The notes beneath the pieces were generated by a model. It did no database searches, was not told the origin of the DNA, and saw only the letters and a list, made by a program, of their open reading frames with translations. A stretch of 40,186 nucleotides of DNA, taken from contig QCWB01000004.1 of assembly GCA_013114715.1 (NCBI GenBank), forward strand, positions 1 to 40,186. The letters run 5' to 3'. Shown piece by piece: positions 21,547 to 26,189 of the stretch. The stretch comes from Nitrososphaera sp. Its GTDB lineage: Archaea; Thermoproteota; Nitrososphaeria; Nitrososphaerales; Nitrososphaeraceae. The stretch's first letter is position 1, and each line of letters begins with the position of its first letter. The position numbers were made by a program, and so were the translations under genes.

Positions 21547-21675
21547 ATAGTCTCTCATAATTACGTAGACGGCCGTATTATCGTGCTTGTGAGAATTCCT
21601 CTTTACAGACGAGTTCTAAACCGTTTGATACAATATTGGCGGTGTGAGTGCAATCTTTATCAAAGATGTTGTAGT

Positions 21676-21828
21676 ATGTATGGCATGTTCAAAGATCCGG
21701 TTTGCAAGATGATGGTAGATGAAAAAAGCGCAGAACATGTTTCAAAGGTTGGGGGAAGGACCGTATACCTGTGTTCGGCGGAATGCAAAAAAGAATTCGA
21801 AAAGAATCCAAAAAAATATGGATACTAG
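21676..21828 (+). CDS. YHS-domain metal-binding mini-protein
   Basis: The 50-aa protein is essentially one YHS (TRASH-like) domain. It has DPVCKMMVDEKSAEHVSKVG, then YLCSAECKKEFEKNPKKYG, with cysteines in the usual C...C...C places. It closely resembles the N-terminal domain of the copper ATPase encoded at 23147. Inference: it is a copper chaperone or sensor for that pump. The longer frame from 21583 is ignored because a TATA-like CTTTATC near 21657 fits a start at ATG 21685 or 21676. Its stop is 3 nt from the stop of the convergent Met-rich gene. Confidence 0.75.
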   Translation: MYGMFKDPVCKMMVDEKSAEHVSKVGGRTVYLCSAECKKEFEKNPKKYGY

Positions 21829-21831
21829 GCA

Positions 21832-22848
21832 TTATTTCTCCTGCATGAACTGACCATGCCACCAGTGGTAGATTATCTGACCTGTGTAGCCGTTGACGCT
21901 AAGCATGCCTGATATTTTGCCATCCGTCTCTACGTGTATGGTGTAGTAGCCATAGAACTGATCGACGTCTTCCGCGACGGCCCCAGCAAAGTTCTTGTCC
22001 AGATATGTCTGTGCCAGTGATTGCGCCTCATCGCTGGTAATTGTCATCTCCGTTGTGCCGTTAGTTTGCATCATGCCATATTTCGTATTCCACATCATGT
22101 TGGCTCCGGGTTCCGGCATTACAACACCGGCAGGCATCATTGTTTTGGAATCCTTCCAGACAAGCATTTCTAATGCCCCGATTCCCGTATCCTTTTCATA
22201 CATGATAAAGTAAAAGTTGTTTTCAAACTCCATTAGGTCTTTTATGGCCAAGTTCTGATTATCTAAAGTCAGGAATTCCTGCGCTGCCTTTTCCACGTTA
22301 TCGATGTTTAGCGGTTCCTGTACTTGGATGGTATTAGACATCATCATAGAACCCATGCCAAAGCCTTGCATTCCAGAACCCATCATGCTGCCGCCCATCA
22401 TTCCTCCGTTCATCATGTTGTTCATCATCATTCCTTGTCCCATCATTTCTTGCATGAATTGCTGGTTGCTGGCCATGTTCTGCATCATTTGCTTTCTAAG
22501 CTCAGGGTCGTTCATCATACCAGTCATGGTGCTTTGGGCAAACTGCTTGTCCTGACGCATATTTTCCATCATCTGCCTGTTGAATTCAGGGTCGTTCATC
22601 ATCTCGTTCATAAATTGAGGATTCTGCATTATAGACGTCATCATCTGCTGCCGCCCTGTCTGCGTGTTCATCATCTGTTGGTTCCATTGATTCATCATCT
22701 GCGGATTCTGCATCATGTTCCCGATTGTCTGAGGATTCTGAAACATCATGTTAGGTGAAACGGTCGATGAAAAGACTCCATATCCTACGGCCAATCCTAC
22801 GAAAAATAACCCCGCAGCTATCCCTATCCAGAGATATTGGTTTGCCAA
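21832..22848 (-). CDS. Methionine-rich membrane-anchored protein with PepSY-like C-terminus, putative Cu(I) binding
   Basis: The 338-aa protein starts with a single TM helix (about residues 5-28, WIGIAAGLFFVGLAVGYGVF), so the rest is probably outside the cell. Residues 34-170 contain 40 methionines in 137 residues, mostly MM pairs or MMM triplets. They are arranged in imperfect repeats such as MMQNPQ, MMNDPEF and MMNDPELRKQ, rather like STI1/ubiquilin NPxxMxxMM repeats. After about residue 175 a compact domain resembling tandem PepSY units follows (SDEAQSLAQTYLDKNF, ISGMLSVNGYTGQIIYHWWHG). Methionine clusters bind Cu(I) in periplasmic copper proteins (established). The neighbours copA and YHS support copper handling. 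The start is TTG 22848, with a TATA-like box at 22881-22886 and a 19-bp element beyond it. Confidence 0.8.
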   Translation of the reverse strand: MANQYLWIGIAAGLFFVGLAVGYGVFSSTVSPNMMFQNPQTIGNMMQNPQMMNQWNQQMMNTQTGRQQMMTSIMQNPQFMNEMMNDPEFNRQMMENMRQDKQFAQSTMTGMMNDPELRKQMMQNMASNQQFMQEMMGQGMMMNNMMNGGMMGGSMMGSGMQGFGMGSMMMSNTIQVQEPLNIDNVEKAAQEFLTLDNQNLAIKDLMEFENNFYFIMYEKDTGIGALEMLVWKDSKTMMPAGVVMPEPGANMMWNTKYGMMQTNGTTEMTITSDEAQSLAQTYLDKNFAGAVAEDVDQFYGYYTIHVETDGKISGMLSVNGYTGQIIYHWWHGQFMQEK

Positions 22849-22898: not shown

Positions 22899-22917
22899 TT
22901 GTGCACTGCAGTGCAAT
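22899..22917 (-). promoter_or_regulatory. 19-bp candidate operator upstream of the Met-rich gene (copy 1)
   Basis: On the minus strand this reads ATTGCACTGCAGTGCACAA and includes the perfect 14-bp palindrome TGCACTGCAGTGCA (22902-22915). It matches copy 2 at 15 of 19 positions. The near edge is 12 nt upstream of the ATATAT box at 22881-22886. Position upstream of TATA suggests an activator-type site. Confidence 0.6.
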
Positions 22918-23081: not shown

Positions 23082-23100
23082 GTTGCAGTGCAATGCACAC
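23082..23100 (+). promoter_or_regulatory. 19-bp candidate operator upstream of copA (copy 2)
   Basis: The sequence is GTTGCAGTGCAATGCACAC. Its near edge is about 9 nt upstream of a TATA-like TTTAGATA (23110-23117), which lies 30-37 nt from the copA ATG. The consensus with copies 1 and 3 is TTGCAnTGCAnTGyACA. Confidence 0.6.
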
Positions 23101-23146: not shown

Positions 23147-25327
23147 ATGGCCAAGGACCCCGTATGTGGAATGGTGGTCAATGAAAAGACCGCGCTCAGT
23201 TCTGAGATAGGTGGCAGGCAATTCTACTTTTGCAGCTCTAGCTGCCTGAACACTTTTGCCAATCCCGAAAAGGAACTCGGCAAGCTCAAAAAGAGGATGT
23301 ATGTGGCCGTCTCAGGCGCCCTCATCCTTGCCATAATGCGTGGAGCCCTTTATCTTGGGCTGGCCTTTGGAGCCGTGGCAGTTACATGGGCACCAATTCC
23401 AAACATCCCCTACCTAACTTGGGGGCTTTTGTTATTCTTCATTACGACGCCAATACAGTTCATCGGCGGATGGACATTCTATGTTGGCGCTTACGAAGCT
23501 GTCAAGCGTAGGACTGCCAACATGGACCTACTGATATCAATAGGGACGCTAGCGGCCTACATATACAGCACAGTAGTATTGTTTTTCCCCGGAATCTTGC
23601 CAGTAAATGAAAGAGACGTTTACTTTGAAGTCTCTGCAGTAATCATCGCCTTTGTTCTGCTTGGAAAATACATGGAAGAGGCTATCAAAAAGAGAAGCTC
23701 TGCTTCTGTCAGGAAGCTCCTTGACCTCCGGCCTGCAATGGCAAGGGCAGTACGTGATGGTGTTGAAGTTGAAATTCCTGCCAGCGAAGTGGCTGTGGAC
23801 GACATACTCGTAGTTAAGCCAGGAGAAAAGATACCTACTGACGGGGTAGTTATCCATGGAACATCTGCAGTCGATGAGAAGATGATTACCGGTGAAAGCA
23901 TACCGGTGGATAAGCAACCCGGCTCCGAGGTGATCGGAGCCACCCTCAATAAACAAGGATTGCTCAAGATAAGGGCCACAAAAGTTGGAAGAGAGACAGC
24001 ACTTTCACAAATAGTGCACATAGTCGAAGAGGCGCAAGCATCCACAGGCAATATCCAAAGGCTGGTAGATTCAGTCTCTGCAAAATTCGTGCCAGCAGTG
24101 GTGTCAGTATCTGTGGGCGCATTTCTGGTCTGGTATTTTGTCTTTGGTAACTTTGTCACGGGGCTGCTCTCATTCATAGCAGTTCTGATAATTGCATGTC
24201 CATGCGCACTGGGAATTGCAACTCCAGCTGCTTTGATGGTAGGTGTGGGCAAAGGTGCAGAAGCAGGGATCCTGATAAGAGGAGCAGAATACCTGGAACG
24301 CTCGCAAAAGATAAAGACCGTAGTATTTGATAAGACGGGCACATTAACAAAAGGAGAGCCGTCTGTTACAGACATTGTTACCTTCAAGGGCTTTGAAAGG
24401 GATGATGTCTTACAACTTGCAGGTGCGGTGGAAACTGGTTCTGAACATCCTCTAGCCCAGGCCGTGGTAAGAGAGGCAAAACAAAGGCGTCTTCTACTGG
24501 TTCGCCCTGAAGAATTTGAGGCTGTCTCCGGCATGGGTGTCAAGGCAGTGGTGAACAACAGGGACATACTTTTTGGCAACAGAAAACTCATGAATAAATT
24601 CGAGATTTACTCGGATTTCATCGAGGAGAAGATGCAAGAGCTTGAAGCTCATGGGAAGACCGTCATGATCGTTGGTGTAGACAAGGAGATCGCAGGACTG
24701 ATTGCAGTAGCTGACACACTAAAAGCGTCGTCAGCTGCAGCTATAAAGGCACTGAAAGACCTTGACATCGAGACGGTCATGCTCACCGGCGATAACGAAA
24801 AGACGGCCAAGTCAGTCGCAAAGAGCGTTGGCATAGACAAGGTCATTGCCAACGTGCTGCCGGGAGAGAAGGCTGGCGTGATAAAGCAGTTGCAGTCTGA
24901 AGGAAAGGTCGTGGCCATGGTAGGTGATGGGATAAATGATGCTCCAGCATTGGCCCAGGCAGACATTGGAATAGCCATAGGAAGCGGATCGGACATTGCC
25001 AAGGAAACAGGCGGAATAATACTGATCAAAGACGATGTAATGGATGTTGCGAGATCCATCAGACTGAGCAGAGCCACGATGAAGAAGATAAGGCAGAACC
25101 TTTTCTGGGCGCTAATCTACAACGCTGCAGGGATTCCGGTCGCCGCAATTGGATTGCTAAGTCCAATGATCGCAGCGGCTGCAATGGCATTAAGCTCCAT
25201 ATCCGTTATTGCAAACTCTTCTCTGCTCAAGCGACTAAAGATTGTTGACAAGGAAGGCGTTGTGAAGACGGAAAGCATGACGAAGGACGGAAAACAAATA
25301 CAAGAAATGAATCTAAGTCGTATCTAG
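23147..25327 (+). CDS. copA: Copper-exporting P1B-type ATPase with N-terminal YHS domain
   Basis: The 726-aa membrane pump is predicted to expel Cu+ using ATP. It begins with a YHS domain (DPVCGMVVNEKT...FCSSSC, residues 4-~45) in place of the common HMA domain. Eight TM helices are expected. Hallmarks are the CPC metal site at 351-353, phosphorylated D395 in DKTGTLTKGEP, the SEHPLAQAVV histidine-proline motif and GDGINDAPAL. Late TM motifs are LIYNAAGIP and MALSSISVIANSS, matching the YN and MxxSS signature of Cu+ pumps. It lies between the Met-rich gene, divergent across about 300 nt with two operator-like sites, and a lysyl-oxidase-like copper enzyme. Copper-responsive control is likely. 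Confidence 0.93.
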   Translation: MAKDPVCGMVVNEKTALSSEIGGRQFYFCSSSCLNTFANPEKELGKLKKRMYVAVSGALILAIMRGALYLGLAFGAVAVTWAPIPNIPYLTWGLLLFFITTPIQFIGGWTFYVGAYEAVKRRTANMDLLISIGTLAAYIYSTVVLFFPGILPVNERDVYFEVSAVIIAFVLLGKYMEEAIKKRSSASVRKLLDLRPAMARAVRDGVEVEIPASEVAVDDILVVKPGEKIPTDGVVIHGTSAVDEKMITGESIPVDKQPGSEVIGATLNKQGLLKIRATKVGRETALSQIVHIVEEAQASTGNIQRLVDSVSAKFVPAVVSVSVGAFLVWYFVFGNFVTGLLSFIAVLIIACPCALGIATPAALMVGVGKGAEAGILIRGAEYLERSQKIKTVVFDKTGTLTKGEPSVTDIVTFKGFERDDVLQLAGAVETGSEHPLAQAVVREAKQRRLLLVRPEEFEAVSGMGVKAVVNNRDILFGNRKLMNKFEIYSDFIEEKMQELEAHGKTVMIVGVDKEIAGLIAVADTLKASSAAAIKALKDLDIETVMLTGDNEKTAKSVAKSVGIDKVIANVLPGEKAGVIKQLQSEGKVVAMVGDGINDAPALAQADIGIAIGSGSDIAKETGGIILIKDDVMDVARSIRLSRATMKKIRQNLFWALIYNAAGIPVAAIGLLSPMIAAAAMALSSISVIANSSLLKRLKIVDKEGVVKTESMTKDGKQIQEMNLSRI

Positions 25328-25412: not shown

Positions 25413-26189
25413 ATGACCGGCTTTAAGATGCTTGGCGTTGGTGTGGCAGGAATACTTGCAGCAAGTATAGCGACAATATTTGCGCAAAACGTTTCAGCGG
25501 CTTCAGCGTTGTTGCCTGACTTGAAAACAACCATTCCACATCACCTCTCGATACAAAACGACCATCAAAAAGAATTCCTGAGATTCTCAAACGGCGTAGC
25601 CAATACGGGTCAGGGTCCGCTCCAGATAATAGCAGTAATACCGGCATCCGACCCAACTCAGACGCAGGATGCGATACAGCAGATTCTTGACGAAAACGGA
25701 AATATAGTAGAAGAAAAGCTGGTCAGCAAATTCACGTTCCACGAACAACACAACCACTGGCATATTGCAGACGTGGCCCTGTTTGAAGTCAGGCAGGGAA
25801 GTGTAGACGGCCCGGTTGTTGGAACGTCTACCAAGATAACATCATGCCTCATTGACTGGTACAAGATTGATGACAACTCCAAGACCAAAGAAAGGACGTA
25901 CTGGGAATGCAACGGCGAATTACAGGGCATCAGTCCAGGGTGGGTAGACCAGTACCACCACGCGCTTGCAGACATGGAAGTCGAGATCACTGGAGCGGAG
26001 CCAGGCCAGTATTATCTGGTGAGCACTGCAAATCCCAACAAGACGTTTATTGAAACGGATGATGAAAACAATACAGCATGGGTGTCATTTGACCTGAAAA
26101 GAGACAGCAACGGCAATGCCAAGATAAAGGTAACAGGACATTCTGTTTGCGAGCCGGGATTATGCAGTGAAAAGGTGCCAAACAGGTAA
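25413..26189 (+). CDS. Secreted lysyl-oxidase-like copper amine oxidase
   Basis: The 258-aa protein begins with a signal peptide (to about residue 30). It matches the lysyl oxidase catalytic domain: the copper-ligand cluster HEQHNHWHIADVALFEV, then TKITSCLIDWYK, and ELQGISPGWVDQYHHALADM followed by PGQYYLVSTANPNKTFIETD. The lysine in TKITSCL and the tyrosine in DQYHHA fall where the LTQ-cofactor Lys and Tyr sit in animal enzymes. This alignment was made by eye. The likely role is oxidation of protein lysines or amines at the cell surface. It follows copA by 85 nt but has its own TATA-like box about 26 nt before ATG. Confidence 0.82.
   Translation: MTGFKMLGVGVAGILAASIATIFAQNVSAASALLPDLKTTIPHHLSIQNDHQKEFLRFSNGVANTGQGPLQIIAVIPASDPTQTQDAIQQILDENGNIVEEKLVSKFTFHEQHNHWHIADVALFEVRQGSVDGPVVGTSTKITSCLIDWYKIDDNSKTKERTYWECNGELQGISPGWVDQYHHALADMEVEITGAEPGQYYLVSTANPNKTFIETDDENNTAWVSFDLKRDSNGNAKIKVTGHSVCEPGLCSEKVPNR

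What the first reader, a model, noticed from the sequence alone, without database searches (positions are those of the whole stretch)
21832..22848. Extreme methionine-rich extracellular protein with STI1-like repeats
Residues 34-170 carry 40 methionines in 137 positions, in imperfect NPQ/DPE-MM repeats, between a TM anchor and a PepSY-like domain. The repeats resemble ubiquilin/STI1 Met-rich helices more than the loose Met motifs of bacterial CopK/PcoE-type proteins. Its neighbours are copper genes. It could be a Cu(I) sponge or a copper-delivery protein supplying copper enzymes such as ammonia monooxygenase.
Basis: partly seen in the sequence, partly recalled or inferred. Interest (0 to 1): 0.68.

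Follow-up and report, generated by a model that had tools for sequence, protein, structure and literature searches.

The report
Archaeal methionine-rich copper-handling envelope protein
This gene belongs to an apparently undescribed family of membrane-anchored, methionine-packed proteins of ammonia-oxidizing archaea that are repeatedly fused to copper-binding domains, sit near copper pumps and share control sequences with copper enzymes, so they probably hold or deliver copper(I) outside the cell membrane, although no one has tested this.

Summary
The 338-aa frame (TTG start, 22848 to 21832, minus strand) has 40 Met in residues 34-170, behind an N-terminal TM helix and before a tandem-PepSY domain. 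The repeats (39-137) are predicted with good confidence as eight short amphipathic helices; a disordered Met/Gly tail follows. Similarity to ubiquilin/STI1 is sub-threshold, and the spore protein GerD matches as well or better. The module is a distinct family of ammonia-oxidizing archaea: 82 of 136 near-complete genomes of one AOA family and about 5 of 70 of the window's own. In 68 proteins the module averages 24% Met with almost no Cys. At least 18 carry a C-terminal cupredoxin; only the window's carries PepSY. The gene sits divergently beside an orthologous YHS-type Cu(I) ATPase in three genomes, and P-type ATPases are about 20-fold enriched near family members. Members share operator-like motifs at a fixed distance upstream, also found beside NirK, cupredoxin, CBS and UspA genes. 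Best reading: an extracytoplasmic Cu(I) buffer or carrier (0.58). A chaperone-like hydrophobic groove and a stress-related Met sink remain open. The PepSY fusion itself was found in no other member.

The parts
21835..22848 (-). Met-rich TM-anchored protein, 338 aa, TTG start
22768..22839 (-). N-terminal transmembrane helix, residues 4-27
   Evidence: helix 4-27; F15, G18, G22, Y23 invariant
22438..22734 (-). helical Met repeat, residues 39-137: eight short helices broken at NP/DP, Met period 10/14/24
   Evidence: pLDDT about 81-90; amphipathicity p=0.0006; lags 10, 14, 24, 28, 38
22339..22437 (-). disordered Met/Gly-rich tail, residues 138-170, 14 Met in 33
21835..22347 (-). tandem PepSY domain, residues 168-338; family-invariant N250-M251-M252-W253-N254, M315, W330-H331-G332; nearly invariant H328
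22902..22915 (-). operator-like TGCANTGCANTGCA, 53 bp upstream of the Met-gene start
23084..23097 (+). operator-like TGCANTGCANTGCA, 49 bp upstream of the ATPase start
23147..25327 (+). YHS-domain P1B (CPC) heavy-metal ATPase, CopA-like, divergent from the Met gene
   Evidence: orthologous pairing in G029 and G040
21583..21828 (+). small YHS-domain protein, converging on the Met gene
   Evidence: PF04945 E 2.3e-9
25413..26189 (+). lysyl-oxidase-family protein downstream of the ATPase
   Evidence: PF01186 E 1.2e-12

Best explanation
A membrane-anchored, extracytoplasmic Cu(I)-binding protein of an ammonia-oxidizing archaeon. The N-terminal helix holds it in the membrane. The Met-lined helical repeats and the flexible Met/Gly tail bind Cu(I) through thioethers and act as an exchangeable copper buffer beside the Cu(I) ATPase made from the divergent gene. 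In the family the module is attached to a partner domain that uses or hands on copper: mostly nothing or a cupredoxin, and here a tandem PepSY domain with invariant Met and His residues that could be a second metal site or a docking surface. Shown: the Met content and its conservation, domain layout, cupredoxin fusions, linkage to Cu(I)-type ATPases, shared promoter elements. Inferred: outward topology, Cu(I) binding, buffering or delivery, and any role of the PepSY part.
For: (1) The same TM+Met module is fused to cupredoxins in at least 18 of 68 family members (Pfam Cupredoxin_1 in 15 and Copper-bind in 11); three of these are in the window's genus, one of them in its own genome (C86). (2) In G029 and G040 a standalone Met-module gene is divergent from the orthologous YHS-ATPase, as here. 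Over 67 loci, 12 P-type ATPases lie within 5 kb, nearly all with a CPC motif, against about 0.5 expected from 33 in 20 genomes. (3) Operator TGCANTGCANTGCA stands 43-58 bp upstream of five Nitrososphaera-type members (0-1 mismatch) and 47-52 bp upstream of the three ATPases. In the other AOA family TGANNNTCA stands 20-80 bp upstream in 30 of 60 members, peaking at 50-52 bp, background 3.7% per 69 bp. Both motifs also occur beside NirK-like, cupredoxin and CBS genes. (4) Met replaces Leu/Ile/Val; Cys is almost absent and His low, as in thioether Cu(I) sites. (5) The PepSY relatives elsewhere have MMGG-rich linkers and some lie beside CPC/YHS ATPases. (6) The genome is an AOA, with two amoA copies.
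Against: No metal-binding measurement exists. Most members are not next to a copper gene, and several AOA genomes with the family have no P-type ATPase at all. The Nitrososphaera motif also precedes UspA, Hsp20 and CBS genes, so it looks like a stress regulon rather than a copper-specific one. Met-rich amphipathic helices are also how STI1 and SRP bind hydrophobic helices (PMC13083928, PMC8010706). The genome that by size is probably N. viennensis (G042; inference), the species studied under copper limitation, lacks the family.
Confidence: 0.58

Rival explanations
1. An extracytoplasmic STI1-like holdase: the repeats form a Met-lined groove that shields hydrophobic segments of envelope proteins (for example AMO subunits or anchored cupredoxins) during assembly; the C-terminal domains are cargo or targeting parts.
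For: Predicted string of short amphipathic helices broken at NP/DP, as in STI1 helical hands whose groove is Met-rich (PMC13083928; PMC8010706); weak UBQLN1 and STI1-HOP_DP hits; co-regulation with Hsp20 and UspA.
Against: No STI1 model reaches its cut-off; PDB profile search finds no STI1 structure; Foldseek gave no STI1 match (inconclusive because the model's C-term was poor). STI1 groove contacts include Leu and Ala as well as Met (list in PMC13083928), whereas here Met dominates. Does not explain repeated fusion to cupredoxins or the ATPase linkage.
Confidence: 0.2
2. A sacrificial methionine shield: surface Met residues absorb reactive oxygen or nitrogen species, as part of a stress regulon.
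For: Motif shared with UspA, CBS, Hsp20 and NirK-like genes; very high Met.
Against: No MsrA or MsrB motif in any neighbourhood; conserved helical repeat and copper-domain fusions are not needed for a sink.
Confidence: 0.08
3. A structural or signalling rod similar to GerD, with the PepSY part acting as an inhibitor or sensor module as in YpeB; metal binding is incidental.
For: GerD is the best curated model for the repeats (12 of 68 members, best E 2.6e-8; 4o8w) and YpeB the best fold match of the PepSY part.
Against: The window protein is below the GerD cut-off; archaea make no spores; GerD has far fewer Met in the aligned region; copper linkage unexplained.
Confidence: 0.08

Closest known systems
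GerD (PF17898, PDB 4o8w)
   Same: Short helices with repeated DPE/Met motifs; best curated sequence match to the repeats across the family
   Different: Much lower Met content in the aligned region, bacterial spore germination, no copper domains; window protein matches PF17898 at 18.8 against 29.5 bits
Ubiquilin/STI1 (DP) domains
   Same: NP/DP-broken short amphipathic helices with a Met-rich hydrophobic face
   Different: Below every curated cut-off; eight rather than five or six helices; extracytoplasmic (inferred); Met replaces nearly all Leu/Ile/Val
YpeB / PepSY family (PF03413, PF14620, PDB 5boi)
   Same: Tandem helix plus three-strand units; one relative above the Pfam cut-off; Foldseek best hit
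   Different: Carries invariant NMMWN and WHG motifs and Met-rich linkers; in part found near metal ATPases rather than sporulation genes
Cupredoxin-fused Met-module proteins of AOA (unnamed)
   Same: Same TM and Met repeat; in two of three Nitrososphaera-type cases the same operator
   Different: C-terminal cupredoxin instead of PepSY
CopK/PcoE/Ctr1-type Met-motif copper proteins (from general knowledge, not compared here)
   Same: Extracytoplasmic Met clusters that bind Cu(I)
   Different: No sequence kinship tested; those are short or disordered, this is largely a predicted helical repeat

Membership tests
STI1 / ubiquilin-type domain | Match to a curated STI1-family profile | tested here: not met
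   PF23195 19.2 against 27 bits; PF17830 E 0.003-0.95 in other members, all below cut-off
STI1 / ubiquilin-type domain | Helical-hand fold with hydrophobic groove | tested here: inconclusive
   Eight short amphipathic helices predicted; Foldseek of the whole model uninformative
GerD | PF17898 above curated cut-off | tested here: not met
   18.8 against 29.5 bits for the window protein; some other members E down to 2.6e-8
PepSY | PF03413 or PF14620 match above cut-off | tested here: inconclusive
   Not by the window protein; by relatives, one above cut-off
PepSY | PepSY fold (helix and antiparallel sheet, tandem) | tested here: met
   Model pLDDT 92.6; best PDB match YpeB 5boi E 1.2e-3, probability 1.00
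AOA Met-module family (defined here) | TM plus Met repeat matching profile A1, Met at least 12% | tested here: met
Copper chaperone or buffer | Binds Cu(I) and exchanges it with a partner | not testable with these tools
   no experiment available
Copper chaperone or buffer | Genetic linkage to copper export or copper enzymes | tested here: met
   12 P-type ATPases within 5 kb of 67 loci against about 0.5 expected; window gene divergent from YHS-ATPase, as in two other genomes; most loci unlinked

The most novel reading that the evidence does not exclude
Ammonia-oxidizing archaea have a dedicated extracytoplasmic Cu(I)-handling module, a Met-dominated helical repeat unrelated to bacterial copper chaperones, which is shuffled onto cupredoxins, PepSY and other domains and expressed together with NirK, cupredoxins and sometimes amoB/C: it supplies or buffers copper for the copper-based ammonia-oxidation chain.
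Probability: 0.35. Interest if true: 0.82.

Novelty: new variant of a known kind. Interest (0 to 1): 0.62.

Why it matters
AOA are abundant nitrifiers that depend on copper for AMO and their cupredoxin electron carriers, yet how copper is supplied to these enzymes outside the membrane is not established; the N. viennensis copper-limitation study leaves uptake and insertion open (PMC7785015). A widespread AOA family that couples a Met-rich module to cupredoxins gives concrete candidates, and a testable pair of operators, for that gap.

Tried and rejected
Plain STI1 membership: below every cut-off. The Foldseek search of the whole-protein model was dominated by its unmodelled C-terminus and says nothing about the repeats. 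A strictly copper-specific regulon: rejected, because the TGCA motif also precedes UspA, CBS and Hsp20 genes. The published N. viennensis copper-limitation motif (TTCSGSMTTTGWACYANT, PMC7785015) was only compared by eye with the intergenic region; just its 3' half resembles a stretch there, so it was not used. Literature searches for Met-rich proteins in Nitrososphaera or Nitrosopumilus found no description of the family. The AYLENYEY helical partner domain looked FTR1-like by eye, but Pfam does not confirm it (one E 1e-3 FTR1 hit; none). The plasmid search found only the PepSY half, mostly in Streptomyces. The tree of the PepSY part places it weakly with an unclassified archaeon and a Bathyarchaeota row (94/63), not with other Nitrososphaerota, so a horizontal origin is possible but not shown.

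Full report
Observation. The frame at 21832-22848 (minus) is real and its start is supported by homologues. The 40 Met in 137 residues are exact, and no other 137-aa stretch in any frame of the window exceeds 14. The 144-aa His-rich frame on the opposite strand (22324-22758) is simply the complement of ATG codons and is not a gene candidate.

Anatomy. A model built from 68 family members predicts helix 4-27 (membrane anchor), then eight short helices between 39 and 137 (block means about 81-90 pLDDT) broken at NP/DP, then a disordered tail to about 172. Hydrophobic residues, mostly Met, lie on one face (combined permutation p=0.0006), and Met recurs at lags of 10, 14, 24, 28 and 38. The C-terminal 171 residues, modelled with 59 relatives, form two helix-plus-three-strand units (pLDDT 92.6, pTM 0.88), best matched by the YpeB C-terminal domain, with invariant NMMWN, M315 and WHG and a nearly invariant H328.

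Two separate histories. The PepSY part belongs to a widespread family in Bathyarchaeota, Methanoperedens, Caldarchaeum, Chloroflexi and others, often with MMGG-rich linkers; some lie beside CPC- or YHS-type ATPases. The Met part belongs to another family that was found only in AOA: 119 of 400 genomes of the class, every one in two families; 82 of 136 in the f2 family at 90% completeness or more; about 5 of 70 in the window's own family. AmoA was found in all 10 genomes checked, including the window's. Only the window copy joins the two. In G029 and G040 the gene at the same place next to the same ATPase has no PepSY part, so PepSY was gained here or lost there.

Copper evidence. Of 68 members, 18 have a cupredoxin C-terminus by motif, 9 a helical AYLENYEY domain, 29 are short; Pfam gives Cupredoxin_1 in 15, Copper-bind in 11, SoxE in 4. 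P-type ATPases: 12 within 5 kb of 67 loci (595 kb; sorted by motif, where two of 14 raw hits are too short to count), against 33 in about 37 Mb of 20 genomes, i.e. about 0.5 expected. The loci are not independent samples, so the ratio is indicative. Six of those 20 genomes have no P-type ATPase although they carry the Met module, so the module cannot depend on one.

Regulation. Three TGCA units at 5-bp spacing stand 53 bp upstream of the Met gene and 49 bp upstream of the ATPase; 0.31 matches with up to one mismatch are expected in the window, 3 found. The genome has 13 exact sites, with 0 for the reversed pattern. The same element, with 0-1 mismatch, precedes five of the genus's members and also UspA, CBS, Hsp20, cupredoxin and a NirK-like gene. 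In the f2 family a different palindrome, TGANNNTCA, precedes 30 of 60 members, mostly 50-52 bp from the start. A longer version of it also flanks CBS pairs, a cupredoxin, NirK, PII-like genes and one amoC/amoB pair (several sites lie inside frames and may be chance). I read this as co-regulation with copper enzymes and stress proteins; the naming of NirK, AmoB/C, PII, CBS, UspA and Hsp20 in those lists is by reading the sequences, not by a profile search.

Interpretation. Copper handling explains the fusions, the linkage and the choice of Met; a chaperone-like groove explains the helix pattern; they are not exclusive. I put 0.58 on a Cu(I) buffer or carrier.

Noticed in passing
window 22902-22915 and 23084-23097; G000 C60, C86, C97, C118, C154, C185, C191; L124, L125: TGCANTGCANTGCA marks a probable Nitrososphaera regulon (UspA, CBS, Hsp20, cupredoxin, NirK-like), 4-22 sites in each genome at least 90% complete, often just upstream of genes; in G027 all 13 lie within 29 kb.
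   Followed up: partly
L221-L246, L242: TGANNATCANNNNTGANNATC in Nitrosopumilaceae-type genomes lies beside CBS pairs, PII-like, NirK, cupredoxin and Met-module genes, and once between amoC and amoB.
   Followed up: partly
L164, L176, L185, L193, L196, L198: Nine Met-module proteins end in a conserved helical AYLENYEYVEGAIAxKD-type domain that Pfam does not name; it resembles the FTR1 periplasmic part by eye.
   Followed up: partly
L033, L039 and other PepSY loci: A small Trp/Met-rich membrane protein sits close to the PepSY gene, often directly adjoining it, in 24 of 80 loci, a candidate partner.
   Followed up: no
window 25413-26189: A lysyl-oxidase-family gene (copper amine oxidase family) lies 86 bp downstream of the ATPase.
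   Followed up: no
G000:C152:1026-3872: A second amoA copy lies about 1.8 kb from another P-type ATPase in the same genome.
   Followed up: no
L007 / L098 9666-10106: The G027 Met-module protein (147 aa) lies upstream of a virginiamycin-B-lyase-like and a sortilin-like propeller protein rather than copper genes.
   Followed up: no
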